DNA of 36,460 bases from Sapientia aquatica. GTDB lineage: Bacteria > Pseudomonadota > Gammaproteobacteria > Burkholderiales > Burkholderiaceae_D. Both the position numbers and the translations under genes were made by a program. The DNA lies in contig NZ_SMYL01000017.1 of NCBI RefSeq assembly GCF_004358105.1, positions 1 to 36,460 on the forward strand. Direction: 5' to 3'. This document shows, in pieces, positions 10,357-36,142 of the stretch. The number at the start of each line of letters is the position of its first letter. Position 1 is the stretch's first letter. Under the pieces are notes generated by a model. The model saw only the letters and a list, made by a program, of their open reading frames with translations. It had not been told where the DNA came from and made no database searches.

Positions 10357-10362
10357 GCGGAA

Positions 10363-12720: not shown

Positions 12721-13698
12721 TTAGTGACGAGCGCCGCGACTTTTAAGTTGATCCAGCAGCACGGCGATTAACAGAATCACGCCACGCATCAGGTACTGAT
12801 AAAACGCATCCACATCCAGCAGATTCATGACATTTTCGAGTGTCCCCATAATCAGCACGCCAACCAATACGCCGAAAATTCTTGCCTTGCCGCCTTGTAA
12901 GGACACCCCGCCCAACACACACGCTGAAATCACATCCAACTCAAAACCCTGCGCCGCATTCGGTTGACCGCTGGTGATACGCGAGGCCAGAATCAGCCCG
13001 GCCAGAGCGGCCACCAGGCCCTGAAGCAGAAATATCCAGACGCGCAATCGTTCTACCCTCACTCCCGCCAGTCGCGCCGCTTCCGGATTACCTCCAATGG
13101 CCAGGGTATTGCGACCGAAGACCGTGTGATTGAGTAAAATCCCAAACACAACAAAACAGAGCGCCATCACCCAGACCGGCAAGGGCATGCCCAACAGACG
13201 CGCATCACCAAAATTAATAAACAGCTCGTTCGCAATCCCCACTGCCTGACCATGCGAAACGATAAAGGCCAGTCCGCGCACCATCAACATCGACGCCAGT
13301 GTGGCAATCAACGCGTTGACCCGCAGATAGGCGATCAACACGCCGTTTGCAGCGCCAATGAGCGCACCTGACAGCAGGCCACCACCGATGGCAATAACGG
13401 TGCTGTGCGTAGACTCGAGCAGAATCGCACCCAACACTCCGGAAAAGGCAATGGTTGAACCAACCGACAGATCAAAATCACGCGAGGCCAGACACAGCAT
13501 CATGGTGCAGGCCACCATGCCAATCTGCGCTACCGACAGCATCAGCCCGACGATATTGACAGCGGAGAAAAAGTTCTGCACGGTTGCCGCCAGCAACGCG
13601 AACAACAGCGAGTAGCCCAGCGTCATGCTGTGTTCAATCATCCATTGTCTGGGATGAACGGATTGGACTGTGTGTTGCAAAGGAACGGGTATAGTCAT
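12721..13698 (-). CDS. araH: Sugar ABC transporter permease AraH
   Basis: A 325-residue inner-membrane permease of the ribose/arabinose class with about 8-10 hydrophobic segments. It carries the AraH-typical stretches [45 protein letters not shown] and [14 protein letters not shown]. It closely parallels E. coli AraH in length and motif order. Its ATG overlaps the araG stop (ATGA), so translation is coupled. It forms the membrane channel with AraG and AraF. In this context it probably moves D-galactose, L-arabinose or both. Confidence 0.9.
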
Positions 13699-15242: not shown

Positions 15243-15292
15243 GGCACCCTCTCATGCAAACGCAACAAAAATATAGTTTAGGGAGTTGCCTG

Positions 15293-16309: not shown

Positions 16310-16365
16310 GTTTATCTCCTGGTAGTTTTTATTGGTACAACCCCAAAGGGCGGGGCACAACTGAA

Positions 16366-17316: not shown

Positions 17317-17396
17317 AAAAATCTGCTCAGTCAGAAAGTGCGATGTCAGGCATCTTAACGACTCTGTGCATGTCCAACAAATGCATTCCGTCGCAC

Positions 17397-17421
17397 CAGC
17401 TATGTCATTTCAGCATAGCTG
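17397..17421 (-). repeat. 8-bp stem-loop right after dgoA
   Basis: CAGCTATG (17397-17404) and CATAGCTG (17414-17421) pair perfectly around a 9-base loop, immediately after the dgoA stop. No U-tract follows. It occupies the only large gap (105 bases) in the dgo-ara transcript, so it may tune expression between the enzyme genes and the transporter genes. AGCTAT and ATAGCT here are also the arms of the dyad at 10270, but with a 13-base gap rather than 11. Confidence 0.45.
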
Positions 17422-18069
17422 TTACTGCGCTTGCAGCGCACACCATGCGGCTACAAATTCACGCGCACGCTCGGTGACCTGGGCGAGCGACATGCCGGGC
17501 TTATACAGTGCGCCACCCAAGCCAAAGCCCGAGGCGCCGTTACGTTGATACTCGGCCATGCGCGACGGTGTTATTCCACCTACCGGAAATAACAGCAAGT
17601 CAGGTGGCAGCACCGCGCGCACTGCATTCAGTACTGCCGGCGTCACCAGTTCGGCCGGAAACAGTTTTACGGCGTGGGCTCCGGCAGCAATGGCACTGAA
17701 TATCTCCGCTGGCGTAGCGGCACCAGCCAGGCACAGCATTCCAGCTTGCCTGGCACAACGAATGACATCCGGATCGTTGTGGGGCATGACGATCAGGCTG
17801 CCGCCAGCCTGTGCAATCTGCTGTACCGAACTGCTGTGAAGAACCGTACCGGCACCGAGCACCGCATCGTTCGGCAGGCACTTCCTGATTCGGGCCAACG
17901 AGTTCAATGCATCCGGCGAATTGAGGGGTACTTCAATTATTCGGAATCCCTGCTCGTACAGGGTCAGCGCTACACCCTCGGCTTCATGAGGGTGTATGCC
18001 GCGCAGAATGGCAATGAGCGGCAGTCTGTCGCAGGCAAGTTTGAAATGTGAAAAATCGACTGAATTCAT
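17422..18069 (-). CDS. dgoA: 2-dehydro-3-deoxy-6-phosphogalactonate aldolase
   Basis: About 215 residues from ATG 18069, which overlaps the dgoK stop (ATGA); the open frame extends 60 bases further into dgoK. A class I KDPG/KDPGal aldolase barrel: general base Glu46 in IIEVPLNSP, phosphate-binding loops GAGTV and GGITP, and Schiff-base Lys135 in AVKLFPAE. It splits KDPGal into pyruvate and glyceraldehyde-3-phosphate, the last step of galactonate catabolism. The dgoK neighbour separates it from the Entner-Doudoroff Eda enzyme. Confidence 0.92.
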   Translation of the reverse strand: MNSVDFSHFKLACDRLPLIAILRGIHPHEAEGVALTLYEQGFRIIEVPLNSPDALNSLARIRKCLPNDAVLGAGTVLHSSSVQQIAQAGGSLIVMPHNDPDVIRCARQAGMLCLAGAATPAEIFSAIAAGAHAVKLFPAELVTPAVLNAVRAVLPPDLLLFPVGGITPSRMAEYQRNGASGFGLGGALYKPGMSLAQVTERAREFVAAWCALQAQ

Positions 18070-19061
18070 GATTGACCGGCCAGTGAAATTGACGTATTGA
18101 TCAGTCCGGCCTGTGTGGCCAGTTTCCACAAACCGTGCGGGGCCGTGTTATGCAATACCAGTGGTACCGGTGCCGCCAAACGTGTCAATGCCTGGCGATA
18201 CATCGCGCACAGTTCAGTTGCGCCGATCAGCACCAGCGGTGCTGCATCCAGACCGGCCTCACTTCGCCATGCCAGTCCGGCAAGCAGTTCATGACCTATC
18301 AGCAGGCCGGAAAGGTAGTCAGCCAGACTGTCGGCACTCATCGCCCCAGTCAACCCCAGTGTCCTGACGGAAAAAAGCTGGTGGCTCAGACCAGAATGAT
18401 GATGATCCCGCGCGGTATCAACACCTTTATCAAATGCCGCCATACTCAACCTGACCGGTTCCGGCTCTGCCGGGATCAGAAAACCCAACACCGAATGACG
18501 TGACAGTACCGCAAATAATTCACCTGTCATGTGCGTGGCGAAATCAAGGATTTGTGCATGCTGCACATTGACCCACTTTGAATGCGTTCCCGGCAGGATC
18601 AGGCAGGCCGCCGCGGCCAGTTCCGGATGCAGCTCGAGCGCACCGACAATCTGGGTTTCCTCGCCGCGCATGACATCTGGCGGCAAACCCGGTGTCTGCA
18701 CGATCAGGCCGGGACAAATCCATGGCGCCGTATCGTCAATCGGCATCAGACTCTGGGCCAGCTCGCCTGCATTACTCGGACAGGCGACATAAGGTGCGGT
18801 GCGCCAGCCATGTTGTGAACCAACCATGCCAGAGGCAAGCAATGGCAAACTGCGCCCTCTGTGATCACGATAGTCAAGCCAGTCACCAGCGAGTTCACGC
18901 AACACTCTGGCATAGGCATCACTACCCCTTAGCTGCAAGGCGCCCTGCTGCGATGAGCGGGTCTGTAGCACGCTGCCCTGTGCGCCTATCAGAAACACGC
19001 GCAATCCAGTGCTGCCCCAGTCAATGCCGATCAACTGCGCTGCATCGTTGTGTTTTTTCAT
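18066..19061 (-). CDS. dgoK: 2-dehydro-3-deoxygalactonokinase
   Basis: About 331 residues. The start is placed at ATG 19061, two bases after the dgoD stop; ATG 19070, overlapping dgoD, is an alternative. A DgoK-family ASKHA-fold sugar kinase: phosphate-1 loop IGIDWGSTGLRVFL, then SGMVGSQHGW, PGLPPDVMRGEETQ, LILPGTHSKWV and HMTGELFAVL, all characteristic of the family. It phosphorylates 2-dehydro-3-deoxy-galactonate to KDPGal. It lies in a coupled dgoD-dgoK-dgoA cassette. Confidence 0.92.
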   Translation of the reverse strand: MKKHNDAAQLIGIDWGSTGLRVFLIGAQGSVLQTRSSQQGALQLRGSDAYARVLRELAGDWLDYRDHRGRSLPLLASGMVGSQHGWRTAPYVACPSNAGELAQSLMPIDDTAPWICPGLIVQTPGLPPDVMRGEETQIVGALELHPELAAAACLILPGTHSKWVNVQHAQILDFATHMTGELFAVLSRHSVLGFLIPAEPEPVRLSMAAFDKGVDTARDHHHSGLSHQLFSVRTLGLTGAMSADSLADYLSGLLIGHELLAGLAWRSEAGLDAAPLVLIGATELCAMYRQALTRLAAPVPLVLHNTAPHGLWKLATQAGLINTSISLAGQS

Positions 19062-19063
19062 GG

Positions 19064-20212
19064 TCACCATTCGGCCACACTGCCATCCTGGTGCCGCCAC
19101 AGCGGATTGCGCCAGTCAGGCGCGTTCCGGCTGGCCTCCTCTACCCGTTGCTCATCGATCACAACGCCAAGCCCGGGTTTGGGTAACGGCGCGATATAGC
19201 CACCGACAATAGTGAAGTCGTCGCGATTGACCACATAGTCGAGTAATTCAGCACCCTTGTTGTAATGAATTCCCATGCTTTGTTCCTGCAGCACCGCGTT
19301 GTGTGACACAAAATCGACCTGCAGGCAGGCGGCCAGCGCAACCGGTCCGAGCGGACAATGCGGTGCCAGTGCGACGTCGTGTGCCTCAGCCATGGAAGCG
19401 ATGCGAATACATTCGGAAATGCCGCCGGCATGCGACAGGTCGGGCTGCACGATGGCGATGCCCCCTTGCTGGAAAACGCGTTTGAAATCAAATCGTGAAT
19501 ACATGCGCTCACCGGCGGCAAGCGGAATAGAGGTGCTCTGGGCAAGTTGCGGGTAATATTCACACTGTTCGGCCAGCACCGGTTCTTCAACAAACAAGGG
19601 ACGGTACTGCTCCAGTTCGCGCAGCAGCACCTTTGCCATTGGCGCGGCGACCCGGCCATGGAAATCAATGCCGAATTCAATCTGATTGCCGAACGCACTG
19701 CGTATTTCCGCAATGCGTTCCACCGCAGCATCCACATCTTTCGCACTGGCGATCATGCCGAATTCTTCTGTGCCGTTCATCTTGAACGTATCGAATCCGG
19801 CTTCACGCAAACGACGAATGCCGGCGATCACATCAGCAGGTCGGTCACCGCCGACCCAGCTATAGGTTTTCATGCGATCACGGACCAGCCCGCCGAGCAA
19901 CTGATAGACCGGCACATTGTGCACTTTTCCCTTGATATCCCAGAGGGCCTGATCAACACCGGCAATGGCGCTCATGAGTATGGGGCCACCGCGATAAAAT
20001 CCACCACGGTACATGGCTTGCCAGAGATCATTGATGCGCGCCGGGTCCTGACCGATCAGGAAGGACGACAGTTCATGGACCGCAGCCTCCACTGTTTTGG
20101 CGCGGCCTTCGATGACGGGTTCGCCCCAGCCGGTAACGCCGGCATCCGTCTCGATTTTAAGAAGCATCCAGCGTGGCGGAATGCGGTAGGTAGTGAGCCT
20201 GGTTATTTTCAT
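19064..20212 (-). CDS. dgoD: D-galactonate dehydratase
   Basis: 382 residues from ATG 20212, the same length as E. coli DgoD and nearly gap-free against it from [15 protein letters not shown] to [16 protein letters not shown]. Enolase-superfamily enzyme: metal ligands Asp in FGIDFHGRV, Glu in [10 protein letters not shown] and Glu in [11 protein letters not shown], with general acid/base His in LAPHCPLGP. It dehydrates D-galactonate to 2-dehydro-3-deoxygalactonate. It is the first gene of the dgo-ara-GH2 transcript, and a LysR-type dyad lies about 100 bases upstream. Confidence 0.96.
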
Positions 20213-20309
20213 CATATTCTCAAAAGATTGACCAACACGGAAATGAGGATCCAATGGGCAAATCTTAAACCGGGCTCACTTGCACGAAATATGAATAAGA
20301 AGCGATTAA

Positions 20310-20346: not shown

Positions 20347-21870
20347 TCAGGCGCCAGGCAGTTTTTGCGGAAAGGTTTTCAGCAGGTTGTATACCATCAT
20401 TCCAGACAGGAACAACAAGGGCAGACTGGCGACAAGTACCGCTGACATAGCGATCTTAATACCGCCATTGACCAGTATCAGTGCAATGGGCAGCAACCCA
20501 AGTGCAACCGCCCAGAACACACGATTCCACCGACTGGGATCTTCACCGACACTGAGCTCCACCGATGTGCAGGCCGCCAGTGCGTAGGCTTTGGAATTGT
20601 AGGTGGCAGCGATAAAGATGATGGCAATCAGTGCAAATACGCCGCGCATCACATTACCGAATGGCAGCGATCCCATTACTGCCGAAATAGCCTGCCCGGT
20701 GCTGGCATCATGAACAATCTGACGCACCGGTACCAGGTGATGCATATCGACGTAATAGGCATAGTTACCCAGAATAATATAAAAAATCCAGGCGCCCAGA
20801 CTGCCAAACACTGCCATGCCAAGAATCAGATCGCGCAAGGTACGGCCTCGGGAAATTCGGGTGACAAAAATGCCGACTATCGGGCCATAGGCGATCCACC
20901 ACGCCCAATAAAAAATCGTCCAGTTTTCGACGAAACCGCTGCGCTTGACCGCATCGGTGTAGGTCAGCATGCGCAAGGAATTTTGCAGCATGAAACCCAG
21001 ACTTTCCGTGCCTTGTCGCAAAATGAATTTGGTTGGTCCAGTCAACAGGATAAACATCAAAAACACAAACGCGAGGCCAACATTGAATGACGCCAGTTTT
21101 GAAATACCTTTGGAAAGACCGGAATAGGCAGCAATGGAAAGCAGACCGATGCAGGTGCACACCACCGCGATATCCATGGTGAGCGATCTGGTGGCGCCAA
21201 CCGAGTCCGCAATCGATGCAGATATCATCGGAATGGACAAACCAATTGACGTGCCAGCGCCTGCCAGCAGAGAAATCACGAACAGGCTGTCAATAATTCT
21301 GGCCAGCAGTTTTGCACGGCCAGGATGTGAAATCAGGCCGTGACATCCGGTACTCAGACGCAAACTGCTCGCGCCGCGCACATAGTATTGATAAGAGATC
21401 GCCACAGTAGGAAGCGCATAAATGGCCCAGGCCAGCGGGCCCCAGTGGAACATGCCATAGCTGACGGCAAGCAGGCGGCCTTCTTCACTTCCTGGCACGG
21501 CATCCATGGGCGGATGCTCTATATAATGCGACCATTCGATCGTCGCCCAGTAAATCAGTCCTGCACCAACCCCGGCACAAAACAGCATGGAGATCCAGGC
21601 ATAGTTGCCAAATTCCGGCTTCTGACTATCACTTCCAAGGCGAATGCTTCCATGCCGGCCAAATGCCACCCAGGACAGAAACAGCAGAGCACCAATGACG
21701 CCCCACTGGTACAGTAGTCCCAGATTTTCGGTGATCCAATCGTACATACCTGCGATCTGTTGCCCGGCCATTTCCGGCCACACCAGAATCGGCACGGACA
21801 CGGCAAGCAAAATCAACGCGGCCGGAATAAATATGGCAGTATCGATCGATCGTTTAAAATTATTTTCCAT
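20347..21870 (-). CDS. BCCT-family transporter
   Basis: A 507-residue inner-membrane transporter with about 12 hydrophobic segments and the betaine/choline/carnitine family signature, including the Trp-rich stretch ENWTIFYWAWWIAYGP followed by GIFVTRISRGRTLRDLILG. BCCT proteins carry quaternary or tertiary ammonium compounds, or sulfonium analogues, by ion- or proton-coupling or antiport. It is the last gene of the four-gene minus-strand unit starting at 24418, 28 bases after the oxidoreductase. It has no obvious link to the galactose genes. The cargo is unknown. Confidence 0.9.
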   Translation of the reverse strand: MENNFKRSIDTAIFIPAALILLAVSVPILVWPEMAGQQIAGMYDWITENLGLLYQWGVIGALLFLSWVAFGRHGSIRLGSDSQKPEFGNYAWISMLFCAGVGAGLIYWATIEWSHYIEHPPMDAVPGSEEGRLLAVSYGMFHWGPLAWAIYALPTVAISYQYYVRGASSLRLSTGCHGLISHPGRAKLLARIIDSLFVISLLAGAGTSIGLSIPMISASIADSVGATRSLTMDIAVVCTCIGLLSIAAYSGLSKGISKLASFNVGLAFVFLMFILLTGPTKFILRQGTESLGFMLQNSLRMLTYTDAVKRSGFVENWTIFYWAWWIAYGPIVGIFVTRISRGRTLRDLILGMAVFGSLGAWIFYIILGNYAYYVDMHHLVPVRQIVHDASTGQAISAVMGSLPFGNVMRGVFALIAIIFIAATYNSKAYALAACTSVELSVGEDPSRWNRVFWAVALGLLPIALILVNGGIKIAMSAVLVASLPLLFLSGMMVYNLLKTFPQKLPGA

Positions 21871-21898: not shown

Positions 21899-22882
21899 CT
21901 AGTTAATTTCGACAACCACACAGCCGTTAAGGCCGCCTTTTTCAATCGCATTATTCGATTCAGCAAAATGTTCTAGAGGATATCGCTGTGCAATTCTGTG
22001 TGTCAACAGACCATGCGCCAGTGCGTCTCCAATATCGTTGATAGCATGTTCTTTGGCTGACTCCGGCATGGCGTAAACAATCACCATTCTGAGTGTCATA
22101 TCCATAAACATCATTTTCCGGAACGGCAGGGCCGGTTCTGCGGCTGACGATGAGTAAGTGGCAACCGTGCCGCCAATACGAATCACTTCCAGTACGGAGG
22201 ACAGGTTGGCACCAAAATCAACATCGATGACACGATCTACCTTACGACCGTCAGTCACCGCCAGCAACGCCTTGTGCCATTCTGGTTCACGGTGACTGAT
22301 CACATAATCCGCTCCGGCGGCCAGGCAATCGTTTCGGGTCGCATCATTACTGGCCGTGGCAATGACCATAGCGCCAGCCAGTTTCGCCCATTGAATGGCG
22401 TAATAGCCGACACGTCCGGCACCCCCGGTTACAAGAACCAATTGCCCCTGGACAGGTCCGTCCGCATGAACACAGCGGTGTGCTGTCATGGCGGGAATTC
22501 CCATGCAGGCGCCAACCGAAAAATCCACATTCCCAGGAAGAGGTGCTGCGCGCTTTCCATCAATGGCCACGTATTCTGCTGCCGTTCCAAAACGTCGACC
22601 GTATTGAGCCTGATATACCCAGACACGCTCACCTATTCGGGAATGCATCACTCCTGGACCAACCGCTTCAATCACACCGGCACCGTCACTGTTGGGAATG
22701 ATCATGCCGCCAGCGAGCAGGTCGGGGAAGGCGCCTGCGCGCTTTTTGGTATCAGAAGGATTAGTTCCTGAGGCATAGAGGCGTACCAACACCTCGCCGT
22801 GCCCAACTGAAGGCCTATCAATCTCGCCCATGCGAATTACGTCGTTAGCCGAACCGAATCGTTCGAACCAGGCTGCTTTCAT
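21899..22882 (-). CDS. MDR-family NADPH:quinone oxidoreductase
   Basis: A 327-residue zinc-independent medium-chain dehydrogenase. It begins MKAAWFERFGSANDVI, has the GroES-like domain (ASGTNPSDTKKRAG), the nucleotide-binding loop VTGGAGRVGYYAIQW and a C-terminal barrel closing strand. It lacks the structural-zinc cysteine cluster of alcohol dehydrogenases. It probably reduces a quinone, enone or enal with NADPH. A strong AGGGAG ribosome site precedes it, 24 bases after the racemase-like gene. The substrate is unknown. Confidence 0.85.
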   Translation of the reverse strand: MKAAWFERFGSANDVIRMGEIDRPSVGHGEVLVRLYASGTNPSDTKKRAGAFPDLLAGGMIIPNSDGAGVIEAVGPGVMHSRIGERVWVYQAQYGRRFGTAAEYVAIDGKRAAPLPGNVDFSVGACMGIPAMTAHRCVHADGPVQGQLVLVTGGAGRVGYYAIQWAKLAGAMVIATASNDATRNDCLAAGADYVISHREPEWHKALLAVTDGRKVDRVIDVDFGANLSSVLEVIRIGGTVATYSSSAAEPALPFRKMMFMDMTLRMVIVYAMPESAKEHAINDIGDALAHGLLTHRIAQRYPLEHFAESNNAIEKGGLNGCVVVEIN

Positions 22883-24578: not shown

Positions 24579-25682
24579 CTAATAAGGCATGCGGATGACA
24601 CTGCCGGGAGAGGTATCAACGCCCCAGTAAACAAAGCGATTGGTGGTGTCGATAAACTGGGTATAAATCCCCTGACTGGTATCACCTCTGGCAAACGGGC
24701 TGCACGCCATCGAGATAGTTCCGGTTTCCCTGAACGTCGTCAGATCGACGGTGGAGACATTGCAGCTATTGTTGGAACTGCCAAAGAACGCAAGGTTATG
24801 AATCAGATCAATGACTCCACCTGAGATTACCGGCGAAGTCAGCGCTGTGGACGCAACGATTGACAGACTGCCCAGATCAATTTTGTACAACGTTGTCGCA
24901 GTGCCGTATGACGTGACATAGGCAATGTTGTTGCCGGTATCGATTAAGCCCCAATCAATATAGGTCGTCGGGATACTCAGACTGGATACGCGCGCTCCGG
25001 TTACCAGGTTGATGCTGACCAGACGACTGGTGCCGCTTTTGGTTGTACCGGTCACGATGCCGGCGTACAACATCTGACGACCGGGATCAATCATCAGGAA
25101 GTTAACGACCGCCTCTCCCGCAAGTAAAGGAATGGAGGACACAAAGGCAGACTTAGACGTATCAATTTTAATGATCTGCCCTTTGACGGTGGCCTTGCCG
25201 GCATTGCTTCCAAAATACGCCATCTGGGTAGTCGGATCATAGGCTTCGCTATACGTGCCTGGGAAATTCAATGACGCGTTTAAGGTCAGCGTACCGGTCT
25301 GAGTAAAATTGGCCAGATTCACAAAAGCAAATTGATTTGAATAATATCCGCCGTAGACAGCTGTGTTTTTGCCGGGATTGTAGGCTACCGCATTCAAATA
25401 CGTCGGCCCGGTAACCGTCAAACTGGACGTGCTGGTCATGCGTGCCAGATCAACCTGAAAAATTTGATTGGGCGATGCCACCCAATCAGAAAAATACCCG
25501 GTATTTGACGTGGCATTAAACACCGAGGTCGATGAATAACTGGAACCCTTGGCCCATTGGACGCTCGGGTAAGTGACCGTGGCAGCTGCAGCCGAAAAAT
25601 GTGCAGCGCAGATCGCCCCTGCTGCTGCGACACCGATGACATATTTTTTAATGAGTGAATGAAATCGATTACTGGATTGCAT
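24579..25682 (-). CDS. Secreted beta-propeller-like repeat protein (hypothetical)
   Basis: A 367-residue protein with a Sec signal peptide (hydrophobic residues about 14-32, ending AAHFSAAAA). The mature part is built from repeated units of about 45 residues, such as IDTSKSAFVSSIPL, DPTTQMAYFGSN, DTGNNIAYVTSYG and DLGSLSIVAST. These alternate fluctuating-value strands with 'seen or stored' strands, as in YncE/YVTN-type beta-propellers. It has few Cys and no catalytic motif. It lies between the SDR operon and the TPR-sulfotransferase, with a good TCTCC-type (GGAGACAT) ribosome site. The role is unknown, possibly binding at the cell surface or in the periplasm. Confidence 0.7.
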   Translation of the reverse strand: MQSSNRFHSLIKKYVIGVAAAGAICAAHFSAAAATVTYPSVQWAKGSSYSSTSVFNATSNTGYFSDWVASPNQIFQVDLARMTSTSSLTVTGPTYLNAVAYNPGKNTAVYGGYYSNQFAFVNLANFTQTGTLTLNASLNFPGTYSEAYDPTTQMAYFGSNAGKATVKGQIIKIDTSKSAFVSSIPLLAGEAVVNFLMIDPGRQMLYAGIVTGTTKSGTSRLVSINLVTGARVSSLSIPTTYIDWGLIDTGNNIAYVTSYGTATTLYKIDLGSLSIVASTALTSPVISGGVIDLIHNLAFFGSSNNSCNVSTVDLTTFRETGTISMACSPFARGDTSQGIYTQFIDTTNRFVYWGVDTSPGSVIRMPY

Positions 25683-27797: not shown

Positions 27798-28664
27798 CTA
27801 CACGCTCAGATTGGAAATTTCGGCCATGATAAATTCAACGATAGGTTTGACGTCCAGCGAAACATCGCCCTGACCGGTAAATAAGGCGATATTAAATTTG
27901 GGCAGCGCCGGAAATCCTTCGGTCTCTCCCATTCGGCGGATATTGGGCAACAGCGAACTTTGACTGAGCACACCAACGGCCAGACCTGCACTGACGGCAG
28001 CCTGAACTCCGCCTACATTCATCGTCGTTACGGCCCCCACCCAGCTTCTGCCGATGGAGTTCAATGCGCTGATGGCCGCTTCGCGATAGAAGCAGGGCGG
28101 AGGAAGCAAAGCCAGCGGCAAAGGTTTATCCGCTTCTAACCGAAAGTCATGGTGGGCCGCCCAAAAAAGCTGCTCCTCCAACAAATTGACGCCGCCCTGA
28201 TTCGCCTCGGAACGGGCCGCAATAACAACATCGAGCTTACCCTCTTCGAGTTCGCGCAACAGCGAGCCGCTCAGATCAATTTTCAGTCTGAGGTCAAGTT
28301 TCGGAAACGTCGCGCGCAGCCTCGACAGAATCGCCGGCACCCGATGTGGTGCCAGGTATTCAACTACCCCAAGTCGCAACATGCCTTTAATTTCAAAGTC
28401 AGACATTCTGAAAATGGTTTCATCGTTGATCGCCAGAATACGCCGGGCGTAACTGAGCAACACCTCACCATGCTCGGTGAGAATAACGGCACCGCGCTGT
28501 CGGTCGATAAGTCGGTATCCCACAAATTCTTCAAGTCTGGCCATGTGCACACTGACTGTTGACTGCGTTATATGCAGGTGATCCGACGCCGCAGTAAATC
28601 CGCCCGTATCGATAATTTTGCAGAATGTGCGTAACAGATCCAGATCAAGGTTGCGTAGTTTCAT
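27798..28664 (-). CDS. LysR-family transcriptional regulator
   Basis: About 288 residues. I choose ATG 28664 (MKLRNLDLDLLRTF); the longer frame to 28748 would begin upstream of the promoter predicted here. The N-terminal HTH shows GGFTAASDHLHITQSTVSVH and VGYRLIDRQRGAVILTEHG. The effector domain covers residues about 90-285. It is divergent from the TonB receptor-esterase-aconitase X operon and shares a 247-base control region with it. It is therefore the likely regulator of that operon. Confidence 0.88.
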   Translation of the reverse strand: MKLRNLDLDLLRTFCKIIDTGGFTAASDHLHITQSTVSVHMARLEEFVGYRLIDRQRGAVILTEHGEVLLSYARRILAINDETIFRMSDFEIKGMLRLGVVEYLAPHRVPAILSRLRATFPKLDLRLKIDLSGSLLRELEEGKLDVVIAARSEANQGGVNLLEEQLFWAAHHDFRLEADKPLPLALLPPPCFYREAAISALNSIGRSWVGAVTTMNVGGVQAAVSAGLAVGVLSQSSLLPNIRRMGETEGFPALPKFNIALFTGQGDVSLDVKPIVEFIMAEISNLSV

Positions 28665-28697
28665 AATCAATTTGGGGGATGTGGAAAGCGGGACATT

Positions 28698-28727
28698 ATT
28701 ATAGAAGCGTGGGGCGATTATAAACAA
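28698..28727 (-). promoter_or_regulatory. Predicted sigma-70 promoter of the LysR gene
   Basis: On the minus strand, TTGTTT (28727-28722), 18 bases, then a perfect TATAAT (28703-28698). This would give a short 5' leader of about 25 bases to ATG 28664 and supports that start. Confidence 0.45.
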
Positions 28728-28777
28728 CCTTGCACCGCAACATTCCATTTCATAATGACTGGCATTGAGTAAAATCG

Positions 28778-28911: not shown

Positions 28912-31419
28912 ATGACAGCACATTACAAACCATCTGCAGTTGGGTTTAAAAACAACACTCATCAACGATCAGGTTTGCCTGCCCGTTCGCCACTGCACCA
29001 TGCAATCAAAACAATTTTCGGCCTCCCGGGTATGTCGGCCGTTGCACTTTCACTCATACAAATCGGTACTGCACTGGCTAATGCGGATCCACAGGCCACT
29101 ACTTATCCGAGCGCAGCTGCAGTGAACTCGACATCACCTGATGATTTGCAAACCGTGGTCGTAACCGCCCGAAAATTCAAGGAGCGCGCTCAAGATGTAC
29201 CGGCCACCGTAGAGGCCATTTCAGGAGAAAAACTCGAGGAATTACATCTGACTAATTTTGAAGATGTTGTCCAACTGTTACCCAGCGTGTCATTTCAATC
29301 ATATGGGCCTGGCCAGTCGCAAATTTATATGCGCGGCGCAGTCGACGGCGGTGACGGCAATCCGTCAGGATCCTCACCAACCGTGGCGGTGTATCTTGAC
29401 GAAACTCCGGTGACAGCGATTGGTCGCAATCTCGATCTGCACGTCTATGATCTTGATCGGGTTGAAGCACTTCCGGGTCCGCAGAGTACCCTGTTCGGAG
29501 CCAGCAGCGAAGGTGGCACATTGCGCATGATTACGCATCAGCCGGTATTGCACACGCTTGAAGGCGGCGTAGATGCAGGTGGTTATTCGACCAACAATGG
29601 AGCGGCCAGCGGCAGTCTGGAAAGCTTTCTCAATATTCCTTTGGGCGAGGATGCTGCCGTGCGCCTGGTTGTCTATGACATTCACGACGGCGGATTCATC
29701 GACAACGTTTTGGGCAACCGCAATTACCAGCTCTATCAAGGCAGTGCGGCGGGAACAGCAACACCGACTTCGCAAGTCAGTGTCAGTAACGCCACCCTGG
29801 TCAAGAAGGATTTCAATACCGAAGATACGCGAGGTGGTCGCATTTCGTTTAAATACAGAATTAACTCAGACTGGTCCTTCAATGCCGGCTGGATCAATCA
29901 GAATCAAAAAACCAGCGGAGTCTGGTCTGATGATGTGAACAATCCCAATGCGAAATTGTCGGCATATCAGGTTCAAAGCTTCTTCCCCAATTCAACTGAC
30001 GACACCTACAATCAAGAGCACGTGGGCTTTGATGGCGATCTTGGTTTTGCAGATTTATTGTTTACCGCGTCGTTCTCGCAACGCAAGGTCAACACCGCTT
30101 CCGATTATTCCGAATATTCGGATTTCAAAGCCAATCCAGGTCTGTCATCGTTTATTGGCGGAGCCAGCTGTGATTACTATGCACTGGCAACGCATCCCTG
30201 CTCCAATCTTGGCATCTATTTCACAACCAATGACCATTACCGCAGACAGACTGATGAGCTTCGGCTACAGTCAAAACTGAAAGGCGATGTTCAATATGTA
30301 GCCGGCCTGTATTCCGAATCGTTGCGCCATGATTATCTGGAGCAGTGGATTGAACCAGGTTCTGCAACTGGCGGGCCAGATATGTCCCTGCTCGGCCCAT
30401 CCAATTTATGGTACGAAACCAATCAGTCACGCCTCGACAAACAATGGGCCGCCTTTGGTGAAGTGCGTTACAAATTCCAGCCTGAATGGACTGCCACTCT
30501 GGGTGGCCGATACTTCCATGAAACGAGCTCCCTGGCCGGATATTCGGGATACGGGCTGTTCGCCTATAGCCCTGTCGTTCCAGTGAATTCATCCGTATCC
30601 GACAACGGCAATACGATGAAGGCCAACCTTAGCTATCAACCTGATGCCAACCAGAATTACTACGCACTGTGGTCACAGGGCTACCGCCCCGGTGGCATAA
30701 ATCGTGTTGCCACGTCCGTTGTCGCTCAGACGTACAAGCCGGACCAAATGAACAACTATGAAGCTGGATGGAAGTTGTCGTTGAGTCGCAAGCTTCAGTT
30801 CGACGGCGCGTTTTACATGATGGACTGGAAGAATATGCAGTTGTCGCGCTACGAATCTGCCTGGGGGGCGCCGCTCGGCTTGACGGTCAATTTGACCAAG
30901 GCACGGATCACCGGTTTCGAAACATCGCTGGCATGGAGACCGGTCAGGAAATGGAATTTATCAGCCGGACTGGATTTGAACAACGCCAGACTGTCGCAAG
31001 ACCTGGTGGTAGGCAGTGCAACTGCAGGCTATAGCGTGGCACCCTCAGGTACGCCATTGCCTTATGCGCCCAAAGTCAAATATAACCTGTCGAGCAGAAA
31101 TAGCTACGAAATTGCAGAGGACTTTGAAGGTTACTTCCAGATGACCTATGCTGAAACCGGAAAACGGTATAACGATGTATTCGTTTATCAGACTCCAACG
31201 CTCGGCACACCTGGCCCTGACGGCAGACGGGAAATGGACGCGTATGGGCAATTGAATCTGGGTACCGGAGTGATGCACAATGCCTGGTCAGCAGATTTTT
31301 ATGTCAACAATGCCCTGAACAAGCGAGCAGAACTGGCCCGAAGTACAGCTGCCTGGGATACCTGGACAACGGTCAACCGCCCTCGTACGATCGGCCTTAA
31401 AATTTCATACAGGTTCTGA
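28912..31419 (+). CDS. TonB-dependent outer-membrane receptor
   Basis: 835 residues from ATG 28912, preceded by GGAGA. It has an unusually long N-terminus (about 55 residues before the mature region at ALANADPQ), followed by the TonB-box-like LQTVVVTARKF. The plug contains RVEALPGPQSTLFGASSEGGT, the signature of the sphingomonad-type receptor branch. The barrel ends in LKISYRF with the C-terminal Phe expected for outer-membrane assembly. It heads an operon with a secreted esterase, so it probably takes up an ester-containing compound or its parts rather than iron. This receptor differs from the one at 4542-7271 and belongs to another branch. Confidence 0.9.
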   Translation: MTAHYKPSAVGFKNNTHQRSGLPARSPLHHAIKTIFGLPGMSAVALSLIQIGTALANADPQATTYPSAAAVNSTSPDDLQTVVVTARKFKERAQDVPATVEAISGEKLEELHLTNFEDVVQLLPSVSFQSYGPGQSQIYMRGAVDGGDGNPSGSSPTVAVYLDETPVTAIGRNLDLHVYDLDRVEALPGPQSTLFGASSEGGTLRMITHQPVLHTLEGGVDAGGYSTNNGAASGSLESFLNIPLGEDAAVRLVVYDIHDGGFIDNVLGNRNYQLYQGSAAGTATPTSQVSVSNATLVKKDFNTEDTRGGRISFKYRINSDWSFNAGWINQNQKTSGVWSDDVNNPNAKLSAYQVQSFFPNSTDDTYNQEHVGFDGDLGFADLLFTASFSQRKVNTASDYSEYSDFKANPGLSSFIGGASCDYYALATHPCSNLGIYFTTNDHYRRQTDELRLQSKLKGDVQYVAGLYSESLRHDYLEQWIEPGSATGGPDMSLLGPSNLWYETNQSRLDKQWAAFGEVRYKFQPEWTATLGGRYFHETSSLAGYSGYGLFAYSPVVPVNSSVSDNGNTMKANLSYQPDANQNYYALWSQGYRPGGINRVATSVVAQTYKPDQMNNYEAGWKLSLSRKLQFDGAFYMMDWKNMQLSRYESAWGAPLGLTVNLTKARITGFETSLAWRPVRKWNLSAGLDLNNARLSQDLVVGSATAGYSVAPSGTPLPYAPKVKYNLSSRNSYEIAEDFEGYFQMTYAETGKRYNDVFVYQTPTLGTPGPDGRREMDAYGQLNLGTGVMHNAWSADFYVNNALNKRAELARSTAAWDTWTTVNRPRTIGLKISYRF

Positions 31420-33011
31420 TGAAAAAACGACTGACATACGCATTGCTTAGCCTCGGAATGATGGCGAGCCTGGACTGGCCATGCAGTGCCAGTGCAGGCG
31501 AGCCAGCTCCAACCGTGGCAATCGAGCATAGCTTGATACAGGGCACTGCCGCCGCATCTCATCCGGGTATGGGCGTATTCAGGGGGATTCCATTCGCAAA
31601 GCCGCCCGTCGGTCCAATGCGCTGGGCTCCGCCTGAACCGACCATGCCCGGAAAGACAATTATTCACGCTGACCATTTTGCGCCGGCGTGCTATCAGGGC
31701 AAGTCCAATACTGACTGGTATCGCGCTATTGCCAAGGCTTTCGACGCTAGCGATATTGGCTTTACGGAGCCGCAAATCAGTGAGGATTGTCTCTACCTCA
31801 ATATTTGGGTGCCATCGCTACAAAAAGGTGAAAAGCTTCCGGTGATGGTGTGGATTCATGGTGGTGGCAATCGGGACGGCTACAGCTTTGAACCGAATTA
31901 TCAGGGTGCGAATCTGGCGGCCGAAGGACGGGTGATTGTCGTTTCAGTGGCCTACCGGTTAAATGTATTTGGCTTCCTCCGCCCGCCTGGTCTGGATCAA
32001 AAAGATCCATCGGCTACTTTCGCGTTGCTCGACCAGATTGCCGCTCTCAAATGGATACAGAAAAATATCTCTGGATTCGGTGGGGATCGTAAAAACGTCA
32101 CGCTGTTTGGCGAATCAGCGGGCGCATCCAATATCGGCTACCTGCTCAGCTCCCCGGTTGCCGCACCTCTATTCCGGCGTGCCATCAGCCAGAGTGGCGG
32201 CTTCCAGATGTTTGATCACTATTCGGCCCACACGGCGAACGACGACAGCCACCAATTTTTTGCGCCCCTGTCAGGCGATCTGGCGATCAAAGCGCTGCGC
32301 GAGATTCCGGCGGCAACCCTGTTGGATCATGCCGGAGAATCGGCCTCAACGGGACTGTTCAGACCGGTAGTTGACGGAACGGTAATAAGTCAGTTTACGG
32401 CCGCAAGATACCGTGAGCATGGCATTCGCCATGACTTGCTGATTGGTTCTAACGAAGACGAATGGTACATGTACCTGGATCCAACTGAGGCATCGTTCGA
32501 GAATGACATCGCGAGCATGCCTCCAGAATCCCGCCAGGCACTCAGATCAATCGCCGCCAGGGAATCCGATATACGCCATGGTCATGACAAGGCCTATACC
32601 TTTGCGAACATGGTCTGTCCGGCGTATCTGATGGCACGAGCAGTAAACAGTGCGCACCATGCCTGGGTCTATCACTTTACAAAAGTGCGCAATGGTGATG
32701 GCGGCCTTGCCCTTGGCAGTTACCACGGCGCCGAGATCCCGTATGTCTTTGACACGCACGACGCATGGTTGCCCACCGACGCAAGCGACATTAAGCTAAC
32801 CAGAGAAATGATTGCATACTGGACTAATTTTGCGCGCACTGGCAATCCGAATGGTGGCGATCTGATTGCATGGCCGCGCTTTGACACAAGAGCTGGCAAT
32901 ATCATGCAACTGGGCGTCACGTCCGGTTCGATGGTCGCACCGAATCTGGAAACCTGTTTGACTCTGGCGCGGCCTCTTTATGAATCAGACAAAGATCTCG
33001 GTGCAGAATGA
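31419..33011 (+). CDS. Secreted type-B carboxylesterase
   Basis: 530 residues. The ATG overlaps the receptor stop (TGATG), so the two are translationally coupled. A signal peptide covers residues 1-27 (ending CSASAGE). It is a carboxylesterase/lipase with the type-B layout: FRGIPFAKPPVG, WIHGGG oxyanion loop, nucleophile Ser233 in FGESAGASN, acid Glu348 in GSNEDEWY and His436 in GSYHGAEIPYVF. It hydrolyses carboxylic esters in the periplasm. With aconitase X and a CoA-transferase downstream, it probably releases the acid that the pathway then consumes. The ester is unknown. Confidence 0.9.
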   Translation: MKKRLTYALLSLGMMASLDWPCSASAGEPAPTVAIEHSLIQGTAAASHPGMGVFRGIPFAKPPVGPMRWAPPEPTMPGKTIIHADHFAPACYQGKSNTDWYRAIAKAFDASDIGFTEPQISEDCLYLNIWVPSLQKGEKLPVMVWIHGGGNRDGYSFEPNYQGANLAAEGRVIVVSVAYRLNVFGFLRPPGLDQKDPSATFALLDQIAALKWIQKNISGFGGDRKNVTLFGESAGASNIGYLLSSPVAAPLFRRAISQSGGFQMFDHYSAHTANDDSHQFFAPLSGDLAIKALREIPAATLLDHAGESASTGLFRPVVDGTVISQFTAARYREHGIRHDLLIGSNEDEWYMYLDPTEASFENDIASMPPESRQALRSIAARESDIRHGHDKAYTFANMVCPAYLMARAVNSAHHAWVYHFTKVRNGDGGLALGSYHGAEIPYVFDTHDAWLPTDASDIKLTREMIAYWTNFARTGNPNGGDLIAWPRFDTRAGNIMQLGVTSGSMVAPNLETCLTLARPLYESDKDLGAE

Positions 33012-33045
33012 GCATGGACTGTCATTACAATAAAAAGAGGTCAGC

Positions 33046-34257
33046 ATGAACTACCTGGAGTGGGCCGAAAATCTGCAGGCCAAGGTGGCCATTGCGATGA
33101 ATGTGCAAAGCTATGTGCCGGTTTCCAGAGCACATCTGGTCGGTTGTTACCACAGCGGGCCAGCCAATCTCGATTTGATCAGGCAACTGGCAAATTCCGG
33201 AGCCAGAGTGGCGATTCCGACGACGATGAATGCCTCCGCAGCAGACATGATCGAGGGCAAACAAGGCAGGTGTCCACGAGCGACAGACTATGACCAGAAC
33301 TACGAACTGGTTAGCCTGCTCGAACAGATCGGTTGTCAACCAACGCTGACCTGCGCTCCCTACTATTTGCCAGATCCACCGAAATTGGGTGAGAACATTG
33401 CCTGGGCCGAATCCAATGCCGTTGTTTTTGCCAACTCGGTGTTGGGTGCCCGCACCAACATGACCATGCAATATCTGGATTTGTCTGCCGCGCTAACCGG
33501 TCGAATTCCTGCGTTCGGACGGTATGCCGATGCAAACCGCATTCCCGCTCTCCGTTTTGACGTCGCCGAAATTCCAGAAGTCTGGTTTCAAAGCGACGCC
33601 TTTTTTCAGCTGCTCGGTTCAATTCTTGGTAGTGAATGCAAAACCGGTGTGCCGATCATCACTGGTGGGCCCGCCGAGATTGACACTGACCACTTGCGCT
33701 CGATCGGCGCCGCCGCAGCCAGTGCCGGCAATCTCGATCTGTTCCATTGGGAAGGCGTTACCGCGGAATCGCGCAACGGCTTGCTCGACTGCCATCTGAA
33801 TCAACTACCTGTTCGCAAGATAAGCAAAGCGATGATCACTGACGCCTTGAGCAAACTGAACAGAGACGCCCATTTCATTCCTGACACCCTGTGCATGGGT
33901 ACTCCACACGCCTCACTCAATGAACTCCATAAACTTGAGAACTACATTCAAAACCGCAAGTTACCTCCAAACAAACGGATCATTGTTTCATTGGGACGAT
34001 ACGTCCATGAGGCGGCGAGCCACGCCGGCCTGATCAGTCGCATGGAAGCACTTGGAGTGGAGTTTATCCGCGACACATGTACCTACTACGGCAACCTGAT
34101 TGGCGAAACCGGCGGAGGCATCGTCACACCGTCGTTCAAGTGGGCCTATTACGGCGGTTCGCAACTTGGCAAACCGGTGGCGTTTGCGCGAATTGATCGC
34201 GCTATTGAATTGCTGTTTTCCGGTGTAGAAATCGGCACTGATCCGTTCTGGAACTGA
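33046..34257 (+). CDS. Aconitase X large (catalytic) subunit
   Basis: 403 residues with an AGAGG ribosome site. It is an aconitase X (AcnX/DUF521) large subunit. Three spaced cysteines likely to hold the iron-sulfur cluster are present: Cys103 in LTCAPYYL, Cys283 in TLCMGTPHAS and Cys345 in RDTCTYYG. Other family features are SGARVAIPTTMNA, ENIAWAESNAVVFANSVLGARTN and the C-terminal SFKWAYYGGSQLG. Known AcnX enzymes dehydrate cis-3-hydroxy-L-proline or (R)-mevalonate 5-phosphate. Here the split large/small form is encoded with a CoA-transferase, which suggests dehydration of another hydroxy acid. The substrate is unknown. Confidence 0.9.
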   Translation: MNYLEWAENLQAKVAIAMNVQSYVPVSRAHLVGCYHSGPANLDLIRQLANSGARVAIPTTMNASAADMIEGKQGRCPRATDYDQNYELVSLLEQIGCQPTLTCAPYYLPDPPKLGENIAWAESNAVVFANSVLGARTNMTMQYLDLSAALTGRIPAFGRYADANRIPALRFDVAEIPEVWFQSDAFFQLLGSILGSECKTGVPIITGGPAEIDTDHLRSIGAAAASAGNLDLFHWEGVTAESRNGLLDCHLNQLPVRKISKAMITDALSKLNRDAHFIPDTLCMGTPHASLNELHKLENYIQNRKLPPNKRIIVSLGRYVHEAASHAGLISRMEALGVEFIRDTCTYYGNLIGETGGGIVTPSFKWAYYGGSQLGKPVAFARIDRAIELLFSGVEIGTDPFWN

Positions 34258-34263
34258 GTAACC

Positions 34264-34752
34264 ATGAATCACTCAGAAGTTATTCTCAACGGCAAAGCCC
34301 AGGGTGAACTGCTGGTGTTGACCGAAGCGCTAAGTTTTTGGGGTGGCACCGATATCAGCACCGGCCGCATTATAGATCGCTATCATCCTCAAGTCGGTAA
34401 GCTGCTGGCAGGCCGGATCGTGGTACTGCCAGGCGTCAAGGGCAGTACCGCCGGAACCGGAGCACTACTGGAAATGTTGTGCGCCGGCGTCGGGCCAGCC
34501 GGATTCATTTTGCGTGGGCCGGACATTATCGTCACGGCAGCGTGCCAGATTGCGAACAATCTGATTGCCACGACAGTGCCCGTGCTGCGCATACCTGATC
34601 TGGATTTTTCCGACCAGAGTCTGGCCGGCATCTGGAACATTGACGATGATCAGATTTTTATTGTTCAGTCAAACAGCATACGACTCAATCCTAAAGGTGG
34701 GTTTCCCAATACAAAGCAGGGAAGCCCGCGACGCTTAACAACAGGTTCCTAA
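34264..34752 (+). CDS. Aconitase X small subunit (swivelling domain, DUF126)
   Basis: 162 residues, starting 6 bases after the large subunit, so they are made together. It is the AcnX swivelling-domain partner: LSFWGGTDISTGRIID, GRIVVLPGVKGSTAGTGALLEM, and APAT-like VTAACQIANN. The Ser/Thr-rich loop after PGVKG is where the small subunit normally supplies active-site residues to the large one. It completes the dehydratase. The last ~25 residues (beyond QSNSIRLN) are variable. Confidence 0.88.
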   Translation: MNHSEVILNGKAQGELLVLTEALSFWGGTDISTGRIIDRYHPQVGKLLAGRIVVLPGVKGSTAGTGALLEMLCAGVGPAGFILRGPDIIVTAACQIANNLIATTVPVLRIPDLDFSDQSLAGIWNIDDDQIFIVQSNSIRLNPKGGFPNTKQGSPRRLTTGS

Positions 34753-34764
34753 ATTCCAAAGATC

Positions 34765-35466
34765 ATGAATAAACTCTATCCAGATTCACGCCAGGCACTG
34801 CAGGACATCATTAAGAATAACCAGACCATTGCCGTAGGCGGCTTTGGCGTATGCGGAATCCCTGAAGCGCTGATTGATGCATTACGCGATTCAGGTGCAC
34901 AAAATTTGACGGTCATTTCTAACAATGCCGGATTGGATGGTGTAGGACTGGGCAAACTGCTTGATACGCGTCAGATCAAAAAAATGATTGCGTCGTACGT
35001 CGGTGAAAACAAAGAATTTGAACGTCAGTATCTGTCGGGAGAGTTAATCCTGGAATTTACCCCACAAGGCACTCTGGCTGAGAAACTGCGCGCCGGCGGA
35101 GCGGGCATCCCGGCCTTCTTCACCAAAACCGGTGTTGGCACGCTGGTGGCCGAGGGAAAAGAGACACGACAATTTAATGGGCAGACTTACCTGATGGAGC
35201 TGGCACTGGTGCCCGATGTCGCATTAGTAAAGGCATACAAGGCCGACCGCGCCGGCAATCTGATTTATCGGAAAACGGCCAGGAATTTTAACCCCAACGT
35301 TGCGATGGCCGGAAAAATCACGATTGCTGAAGTGGAGCAGATTGTGGAAATCGGCGAACTCGATCCGGATGAAATTCATACGCCGGCAATCTATGTCCAT
35401 CGGATTATTGTTAACGCGACACCCGAAAAACGCATTGAACAGCGGACAGTCACCACTGCCCCGTAA
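34765..35466 (+). CDS. 3-oxoacid CoA-transferase subunit A
   Basis: 233 residues. The alpha subunit of a family I CoA-transferase (SCOT/Ato/Pca type): [17 protein letters not shown] and [17 protein letters not shown], with [18 protein letters not shown]. It binds CoA as a heterodimer with the next gene. It moves CoA between acids, commonly from succinyl-CoA or acetyl-CoA to a 3-oxoacid. It is 12 bases after the AcnX small subunit. Sequence cannot separate scoA, atoD and pcaI roles. Confidence 0.92.
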
Positions 35467-35494
35467 AACCTGATTAAAGAGAGTGAGAACAGCA

Positions 35495-36142
35495 ATGGCA
35501 TGGACCCGCGACGAAATGGCTGCGCGCGCAGCAAAAGAGCTGCAGGATGGATACTACGTCAATCTGGGCATTGGTTTGCCTACGCTTGTGGCGAACTACG
35601 TGCCAGCCGGTATGGATGTGTGGTTGCAATCGGAGAATGGGTTGCTGGGGATAGGTCCGTTTCCTTTACCTGAGAACGTCGATGCCGATTTAATTAACGC
35701 AGGCAAACAGACGGTGACGACGTTGCCTGGCTCGTCTTTTTTTAGCTCCGCTGATTCATTCGGCATGATTCGCGGCGGGAAAATCAATCTGGCCATTCTG
35801 GGCGCGATGCAGGTGAGCCAGTCTGGCGACCTGGCAAACTGGATGATCCCTGGGAAAATGGTCAAGGGCATGGGTGGAGCCATGGATCTGGTTGCAGGTG
35901 TTGGTCGCGTTGTCGTGTTGATGGAGCACGTGGCCAGGAACGATCAGCACAAGATTCTCAAGGTCTGCGATTTGCCCTTAACGGGTGTGGGCGTAGTGAA
36001 CCGAATCATTACCGACCTTGGTGTTCTCGATGTTACCGACTCCGGTTTGAAATTAATTGAATTGGCACCGGATGTAAGCATCGATGAAACAATTACTAAA
36101 ACCGGGGCTGAACTGGATATATCGACCATCGTTGCTCACTGA
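35495..36142 (+). CDS. 3-oxoacid CoA-transferase subunit B
   Basis: 215 residues from ATG 35495, after GAGTGAGAAC; an in-frame GTG at 35483 would add four residues. The beta subunit carries the catalytic Glu47 in [12 protein letters not shown], which forms the CoA thioester, plus [13 protein letters not shown] and [15 protein letters not shown]. It is the last gene of the plus-strand operon and closes the proposed route: an acid from the AcnX step is activated to its CoA ester here. The acceptor is inferred. Confidence 0.92.

What the first reader, a model, noticed from the sequence alone, without database searches (positions are those of the whole stretch)
28912..36142. Receptor-esterase-aconitase X-CoA-transferase operon: a possible new ester catabolic pathway
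Six plus-strand genes are tightly packed (two overlap; gaps are 6 to 34 bases). The order is TonB receptor, secreted type-B carboxylesterase, AcnX large, AcnX small, CoA-transferase A and B. Known AcnX roles (hydroxyproline, mevalonate phosphate) do not need a TonB receptor, an ester hydrolase or a CoA-transferase. The set reads as: import an ester, hydrolyse it, dehydrate the hydroxy acid, then attach CoA. I know of no described pathway with this composition.
Basis: partly seen in the sequence, partly recalled or inferred. Interest (0 to 1): 0.78.

Follow-up and report, generated by a model that had tools for sequence, protein, structure and literature searches.

The report
Betaine-ester breakdown cluster with aconitase X
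A bacterial gene cluster looks built to take up an ester, cut it, import a charged betaine-like acid and break that acid down with an unstudied kind of aconitase X enzyme; much of the same gene set recurs in some marine bacteria, so the set is real, but no reaction has been tested.

Summary
Linkage beyond this genome is real, but six genes is not the right unit. Three genomes of the Haliea family carry receptor, type-B esterase and AcnX pair together with genes that here lie on the minus strand: a BCCT transporter, an MDR reductase (63-65% identical) and a TPR-sulfotransferase, plus an SDR that here is a different lineage. The CoA-transferase was found beside AcnX only in the window; the genome has another SCOT A copy 82% identical to it. 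AcnX keeps the catalytic and carboxylate-binding residues of solved AcnX enzymes, has lost the two that hold the nitrogen of cis-3-hydroxyproline, and gained a tyrosine beside a conserved tryptophan. Seven AcnX pairs share this signature and form one clade. The BCCT protein is, among solved structures, closest to the DMSP importer DddT and keeps 10 of 12 pocket and entry residues. Best reading: a pathway for esters of an onium (betaine-type) beta-hydroxy acid, carnitine or a relative, in which AcnX dehydrates the acid without CoA. The gene set and residues are shown; substrate and reactions are inferred.

The parts
28912..31419 (+). TonB-dependent receptor
   Evidence: PF00593/PF07715; relatives 27-34% in Halieaceae and Woeseiaceae loci near AcnX
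31419..33011 (+). type-B carboxylesterase with signal-like N-terminus; Ser233/Glu348/His436
   Evidence: PF00135 322.5 bits; 39-40% to esterases of L095, L179, L180 and 48% to L195
33046..34257 (+). AcnX large subunit, variant active site (Val32, Tyr35)
   Evidence: PF04412 318.8 bits; residue table; predicted fold pLDDT 89.6, best matches 7cnp/7cnq TM 0.89
34264..34752 (+). AcnX small subunit (Trp26, Ser61, Thr62, Ala63)
   Evidence: PF01989 74.6 bits; alignment to 7cnp; positions checked
34765..35466 (+). 3-oxoacid CoA-transferase subunit A
   Evidence: TIGR02429 266.6 bits, cut-off 128.5; second copy 82% identical in the genome; not found in other AcnX loci
35483..36142 (+). 3-oxoacid CoA-transferase subunit B
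   Evidence: TIGR02428 320.7 bits, cut-off 243.55
27798..28748 (-). LysR regulator, divergent
   Evidence: PF00126/PF03466; no BLAST match at 1e-5 to the LysR proteins of L095, L179, L180
26011..27756 (-). TPR-sulfotransferase, recurring neighbour of the receptor
   Evidence: PF13469 169 bits; 41-44% in L087, L095, L179, L180
23651..24499 (-). SDR oxidoreductase; the SDR of the other loci is a different lineage (28-32%)
   Evidence: PF13561
22907..23641 (-). AMDase-like protein, found only in the window among the module loci
   Evidence: PF17645 50.7 bits; no tblastn hit at 1e-5 in the loci then fetched
21899..22882 (-). MDR reductase, best-conserved partner
   Evidence: 63-65% to L095, L179, L180; 49% over 166 residues to the Ekhidna piece
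20347..21870 (-). BCCT transporter, DddT-like, onium pocket kept
   Evidence: PF02028 432.7 bits; DddT 440 bits against CaiT 269; 44-49% to L177, L179, L180, L194

Best explanation
The window holds a catabolic module for an ester of a zwitterionic onium acid (quaternary ammonium or sulfonium) with a beta-hydroxyl, most likely carnitine or a close relative (for example an O-acylcarnitine). Proposed steps: the receptor brings the ester through the outer membrane; the exported esterase cuts it; the BCCT protein imports the onium acid; AcnX-L/S removes water from C2-H/C3-OH without CoA, giving a 2-enoate; the MDR enzyme reduces a double bond; an SDR oxidises an alcohol; a 3-oxo acid is finished by the SCOT pair here or by a beta-keto acid cleavage enzyme in Haliea. 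Shown by computation: the recurring gene set, the AcnX residue signature, the BCCT pocket. Inferred: the substrate, the order of steps, every reaction.
For: Gene set: L179, L180 and L095 (with L177 on the same contig) carry receptor, TPR-sulfotransferase, SDR, MDR, esterase, BCCT and AcnX-L/S., within the fetched loci: esterase 3 of 6, MDR 4 of 6 (the cut Ekhidna piece counted), sulfotransferase 4 of 6, BCCT 2 of 6 (a third is in L177) in the signature loci, each 0 of 129 in other AcnX loci, of which 86 are 10 kb or longer. AcnX: Tyr206 in 7 of 101 large subunits, all seven without Asp203, and Thr71 in the same 7 of 93 small subunits; one clade, SH-aLRT 96. In AtAcnX Asp203 and Thr72 hold the substrate nitrogen, and Trp35 and Ile206 touch C4-C5 (PMC8184944, section 9); here these are Val, Ala, Trp and Tyr, so no alpha-amine is expected and an aromatic pair faces C4-C5. 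Base, carboxylate and metal residues are kept. BCCT: 10 of 12 DddT pocket and entry residues identical (mapped by hand from the alignment and passages of PMC13270143); nine of these ten are invariant in five BCCTs. Several other AcnX without Asp203 sit near onium genes: glycine-betaine ABC genes in L042 and their homologues in L156, MttB in L100, homocysteine S-methyltransferase in L087 and L176. Parallels with carnitine routes: PMC12482172 passages.
Against: The unit is not fixed: G211 has esterase-MDR-SDR on a short contig and no AcnX match in its genome; in the Woeseiaceae genome SDR-MDR-BCCT and AcnX are on different contigs and no esterase matched at 1e-20; Ekhidna also had no esterase match. 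A 62% MDR lies in what looks by eye like an acetone-carboxylase cluster in G429. The window SDR and LysR are not those of the other loci. Loss of Asp203 and onium genes do not track strictly: with Asp203 kept, L024 has an MttB match and eight loci match a betaine-type permease at 33-43%; without it, L005 and L021 showed no onium marker. BKACE is also near AcnX in 4 of 129 other loci. A carnitine dehydratase plus a carnitine dehydrogenase would be redundant. Many DddT-like proteins do not carry DMSP (PMC13270143 passage). The window AcnX-L is at most about 39% identical to any relative found and sits on a long branch.
Confidence: 0.42

Rival explanations
1. One reading: an ester of an ordinary (non-onium) hydroxy acid is imported and cut, AcnX dehydrates the acid, and the CoA-transferase activates the enoate. 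The BCCT, MDR and SDR genes serve something else.
For: Six genes in one compact run; receptor and esterase recur with AcnX.
Against: CoA-transferase absent from the other AcnX loci examined (0 of 135) and 82% like another copy in the genome; BCCT and MDR recur beside esterase and AcnX, which this route leaves unexplained.
Confidence: 0.17
2. The two halves of the ester go different ways: BCCT, SDR and MDR treat an onium compound, while AcnX treats the other half, a hydroxy acid without onium group (a tertiary 3-hydroxy acid such as 3-hydroxy-3-methylglutarate would be possible).
For: SDR-MDR-BCCT and esterase-MDR-SDR occur without AcnX next to them (L194, L195).
Against: AcnX in L179 and L180 adjoins the BCCT gene directly; its new Tyr206 beside Trp35 fits a cationic group near C4-C5.
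Confidence: 0.2
3. The onium acid is a sulfonium, in particular gonyol (5-dimethylsulfonio-3-hydroxypentanoate): SDR makes the 3-ketone, dimethyl sulfide is lost by elimination, MDR reduces the vinyl ketone, and 3-oxopentanoate goes to SCOT or BKACE. AcnX would be a side enzyme.
For: BCCT nearest DddT; the chain explains SDR, MDR and the 3-oxo acid enzymes together (inference); homocysteine S-methyltransferase beside AcnX in L087 (MmuM model 349.1 bits over a cut-off of 215) and L176; gonyol was found in all haptophytes and dinoflagellates surveyed and is consumed by bacteria (PMC7221440 passages).
Against: No needed role for AcnX or the esterase; the bacteria tested in PMC7221440 released no detected dimethyl sulfide from gonyol, methanethiol instead (passages); I know of no gonyol ester (recall).
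Confidence: 0.12
4. [quoted passage not shown]
For: Family match; best solved relative is AtAcnX.
Against: Asp203 and Thr72 lost; NF051439 scores 282.2 and 109.7 against a cut-off of 700 for the fused protein; no hydroxyproline gene among the window genes scanned.
Confidence: 0.03

Closest known systems
[quoted passage not shown]
   Same: Fold (TM 0.89), Ser base, Glu292/Ser293/Asn294, Lys530, Tyr534, cluster Cys273, Trp35
   Different: Split genes (as in IIa); Asp203 to Val, Ile206 to Tyr, Cys71 to Thr, Thr72 to Ala, Ser449 to Thr, one Cys only where AtAcnX has Cys508 and Cys510
AcnX type IIb, mevalonate 5-phosphate dehydratase (TkAcnX)
   Same: Two subunits; no amine site; Thr next to the Ser base (PMC8184944 section 12)
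   Different: Cys at position 449 is Thr; Ser50 and Leu27 are Tyr and Trp here
Pseudomonas aeruginosa carnitine operon caiX-cdhCAB-hocS (PMC5806209 passages)
   Same: Works like: ester hydrolase, onium uptake, dehydrogenase and a beta-keto acid step (BKACE in Haliea)
   Different: Uptake there is by an ABC transporter with CaiX, here a BCCT; AcnX, MDR and receptor are extra; no homology search with the cdh or hocS genes was made
Fumonisin gene cluster of Sphingopyxis (recalled)
   Same: A TonB receptor with a type-B carboxylesterase; fumonisin esterase 8s6d is among the solved relatives
   Different: No AcnX or BCCT there as far as I recall; the esterase similarity is family-wide
DddT, BCCT importer of DMSP (PMC13270143, abstract and passages)
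   Same: 10 of 12 pocket and entry residues; hydrophobic Leu201 and Ala205 at the BetP Na1 site, as in DddT
   Different: Ala99 to Gly, Tyr112 to His; substrate of the window protein untested

Membership tests
AcnX family | Pfam AcnX and AcnX_swivel over cut-off | tested here: met
   318.8 against 31.5 and 74.6 against 27 bits; fold match
[quoted passage not shown]
   Val32 and Ala63. Thr72 itself is kept in few split AcnX (1 of 93 small subunits seen with Thr, table), so Asp203 carries the test
[quoted passage not shown]
   282.2 (L) and 109.7 (S) bits; the model is for the fused form, so split enzymes may miss it anyway
AcnX mevalonate 5-phosphate dehydratase | third cluster cysteine (position 449) and Leu27(S)/Ser50(L) | tested here: not met
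   Thr286, Trp26, Tyr35
AcnX subclasses IIc-IIf of PMC8184944 | position in that paper's tree | not tested
   its reference sequences were not at hand
Type-B carboxylesterase | PF00135 and catalytic Ser/Glu/His | tested here: met
   322.5 bits; Ser233, Glu348, His436 invariant in five
BCCT transporter of onium compounds | PF02028 and aromatic onium pocket with carboxylate Ser | tested here: met
   432.7 bits; Trp143, Trp324, Trp325, Tyr328, Ser208 by alignment
3-oxoacid CoA-transferase (SCOT) | TIGR02429 and TIGR02428 over cut-off | tested here: met
   266.6/128.5 and 320.7/243.55
Carnitine catabolic pathway | activity on carnitine or acylcarnitine | not testable with these tools
   needs enzyme or growth assay
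Carnitine catabolic pathway | cdhA/cdhB/cdhC/hocS homologues in the genome | not tested
   no such query was run; BKACE seen in L095 alone among the six other signature loci

The most novel reading that the evidence does not exclude
A third AcnX reaction: CoA-independent dehydration of an onium beta-hydroxy acid (carnitine type), at the heart of a horizontally spread pathway that scavenges amphiphilic onium esters such as long-chain acylcarnitines through a TonB receptor, a periplasmic type-B esterase and a BCCT importer.
Probability: 0.3. Interest if true: 0.75.

Novelty: new variant of a known kind. Interest (0 to 1): 0.55.

Why it matters
PMC8184944 (section 14) says that the AcnX subclasses IIc to IIf have no landmark residues of either known enzyme and await characterisation; this work gives one unassigned AcnX group a signature, a gene set and a testable substrate class (whether it is one of IIc-IIf was not tested). 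PMC5806209 (passage) says that the enzymes hydrolysing medium- and long-chain acylcarnitines in P. aeruginosa have not been identified; a receptor-esterase-BCCT set of this kind would be a route to such hydrolases in other bacteria.

Tried and rejected
Fusarinine-type siderophore breakdown (anhydromevalonyl esters) was considered, because AcnX IIb makes anhydromevalonate phosphate; dropped when the BCCT and MDR linkage appeared, not disproved. Hydroxyproline betaine was considered; one paper search (34 papers, 10 listed) gave nothing useful in its listing. A first genome-contig scan with the single AcnX-L found nothing. Co-occurrence of Asp203 loss and onium genes was not turned into a statistic, because marker queries were few and Asp203-keeping loci also show some. 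The all-against-all neighbour clustering added no new substrate clue. I did not test glycine betaine or DMSP catabolic genes in the module genomes. Fisher p-values ignore the shared ancestry of the three Halieaceae loci. For the residue table, 12 AcnX-like hits with a different active site (L004, L006-L012, L018-L020, L022) and most fused type I rows were left out (four fused rows of the earlier set, AtAcnX and the later L183 and L184 were in), as were L013 and L023, which are the same genome as L087. The class search that found more MDR genes was not biased by AcnX, but the three Halieaceae genomes were found through AcnX.
Full report
Observation. The six genes are present at the stated coordinates with the stated families and spacing. 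The window is one whole contig; after the last gene only 318 bp remain. The genome is in the same class as the Woeseiaceae genome met below (G361 is 'same class' and has the contig length, 90,943, and sequence of L087), so Gammaproteobacteria in the GTDB sense. No further placement is claimed.

Rarity. In the family search 10 of 195 genomes had an AcnX match, the own one included; the nine others were 27-30% identical and none of the 4 same-genus genomes had one. In the class 10 of 369 and in the phylum 36 of 398 genomes matched at E 0.001, the own included, at most 39% identical. The MDR gene was likewise missing from the 4 same-genus genomes; 4 of 59 relatives matched at 1e-60, own included, the others at 40-48%. 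The set looks like an acquired island (inference).

AcnX. phmmer to solved chains and the residue table show Ser61(S) for the base Ser70, Cys103 for Cys273, Glu122-Ser123-Asn124, Lys365 and Tyr369 kept. Asp203 and Thr72, which bind the substrate nitrogen in AtAcnX, and Ile206, which touches C4-C5 together with Trp35 (PMC8184944, section 9, read), are Val32, Ala63 and Tyr35; Trp35 is kept as Trp26. Residues of mevalonate-phosphate dehydratase (section 12) are not kept either: Thr286 for the third cysteine, Trp for Leu27, Tyr for Ser50. The predicted large subunit (17 sequences, pLDDT 89.6) matches 7cnp and 7cnq with TM 0.89.

Relatives. Searches in the families of Haliea (8 of 140 genomes) and of the Woeseiaceae genome (2 of 107) and in the order of Ekhidna (1 of 241), each count including the starting genome, at 1e-40, gave more. 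In 101 large-subunit rows Tyr206 occurs in 7, and in the same 7 the small subunit (93 rows) has Thr71; these are the window, Ekhidna L084, L095 (Haliea), L179 and L180 (same family as Haliea), and L087 and L176 (Woeseiaceae and its family). They form one clade (SH-aLRT 96 in a quick tree), with the window, L084, L179 and L180 at 99. The window branch is long. In all, 13 of 101 rows lack Asp203.

Gene set. In L179 the order is receptor (cut by the locus start), TPR-sulfotransferase, LysR, SDR, MDR, esterase, BCCT, then AcnX-S and AcnX-L on the other strand; L180 has the same set; L095 has it with a BKACE gene (PF05853 331.7 bits), the BCCT gene lying further along the contig in L177. The 3.4-kb Ekhidna contig has an MDR piece, AcnX-L, AcnX-S and an alpha/beta hydrolase 55% identical to the one at 7360-8295 of the window. 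Control counts against 129 other AcnX loci: esterase 3 of 6 against 0, MDR 4 of 6 against 0, TPR-sulfotransferase 4 of 6 against 0, BCCT 2 of 6 against 0, receptor 4 of 6 against 4, SDR 3 of 6 against 24, BKACE 1 of 6 against 4; CoA-transferase A and B 0 of 6 and 0 of 129. Many of the 129 are short; 86 are 10 kb or more. The three Halieaceae loci are not independent of each other; the window and Ekhidna come from other groups.

Looser forms. In the Woeseiaceae genome SDR-MDR-BCCT is on another contig than AcnX (L194); G211 has esterase-MDR-SDR beside glycolate-oxidase-like genes (by eye) and no AcnX match. A class search with the MDR found 9 of 369 genomes at 1e-70, four of them at 61% or more including the window genome: of these four, two have AcnX (window, Woeseiaceae) and two do not (G211, G429). 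So MDR, SDR, esterase and BCCT look like a core to which AcnX is often added. The window has its own SDR and LysR lineage and an AMDase-like gene that the other module loci lack; L100, another AcnX without Asp203, has an AMDase gene directly before AcnX and an MttB gene about 8 kb on.

Substrate. The window BCCT scores 440 bits to DddT, 269 to CaiT, 218 to the trimethylamine transporter and less to BetT-type and BetP; BCCT importers without a solved structure were not compared. Mapping by hand from that alignment onto the residues named in passages of PMC13270143, DddT 101, 105, 140, 204, 313, 316, 317, 320, 321 and 324 are identical, 99 and 112 differ; all but 324 of the ten are invariant in five BCCTs. 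Import of an onium carboxylate is thus well supported; which one is not. Both known AcnX enzymes act on a carboxylate with a beta-hydroxyl, and this one has lost amine recognition. Put together: an onium beta-hydroxy acid. Carnitine is the commonest one (recall), and known carnitine routes use the same kinds of step: dehydratase plus reductase in E. coli; dehydrogenase, BKACE and DhcAB in P. aeruginosa (PMC12482172 passage). The enzymes here would be different ones. Gonyol is the sulfonium alternative (PMC7221440 passages).

CoA-transferase. The pair is a plain SCOT by models and subunit A by solved relatives; the genome has another SCOT A 82% identical, and 6 of the 7 other genomes searched (all but G969) have a SCOT A homologue at E 1e-20. 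It reads as a late local addition for a 3-oxo acid, matching the BKACE in Haliea (inference).

Literature. A search for aconitase X or AcnX gave 21 papers, 20 listed, most of them unrelated. A second search joining AcnX with betaine terms gave 55, 15 listed; of these 15 three hold AcnX, all on known AcnX enzymes. No listed paper links AcnX with a BCCT transporter, an esterase or carnitine by its title or abstract start. I read sections 4, 9, 12, 13 and 14 of PMC8184944, part 1 of 6 of PMC5144071, the abstract and passages of PMC13270143, and passages of PMC7221440, PMC5806209 and PMC12482172; the library lacks most subscription journals.

Verdict. The linkage claim survives in changed form, the CoA step as a conserved part does not, and the substrate class is narrowed by two separate residue tests (AcnX and BCCT). 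No reaction has been shown.

Noticed in passing
window 2980-20254: A galactan/galactose set on the minus strand: GH30, GH2, 2-keto-3-deoxygalactonokinase and KDPG-type aldolase, galactonate dehydratase (668 bits, cut-off 311), and by eye a second TonB receptor, a sugar ABC transporter and a lactonase-like gene. It runs up to the BCCT gene.
   Followed up: partly
window 7360-8295: Alpha/beta hydrolase whose 55% relative sits right after AcnX-S on the Ekhidna contig (L084 2345-3145).
   Followed up: partly
window 24579-25682: Putative exported protein with no Pfam match between SDR and sulfotransferase.
   Followed up: no
L114, L121, L132, L135: AcnX loci of sphingomonads (Asp203 kept) with a BKACE 48-49% like that of Haliea and a TonB receptor: another uncharacterised AcnX setting.
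   Followed up: no
L004, L006-L012, L018-L020, L022: Twelve AcnX-like proteins with Met203, Asp-Thr-Gly in place of Glu292-Ser293-Asn294 and Ile for Tyr534 (Thr206 in eleven, Ile in L004): possibly another reaction.
   Followed up: no
L095 745-7276: Genes that look by eye like Sox thiosulfate oxidation genes just before the AcnX cluster of Haliea.
   Followed up: no
L180 3960-7091: Transposase- and integrase-like ORFs (by eye) beside the module, which would fit transfer as an island.
   Followed up: no
L100 7546-20633: IlvD-like dehydratase (by eye), AMDase (PF17645 78.9 bits), AcnX with Thr203/Phe206, and MttB (691 bits) in one stretch.
   Followed up: partly
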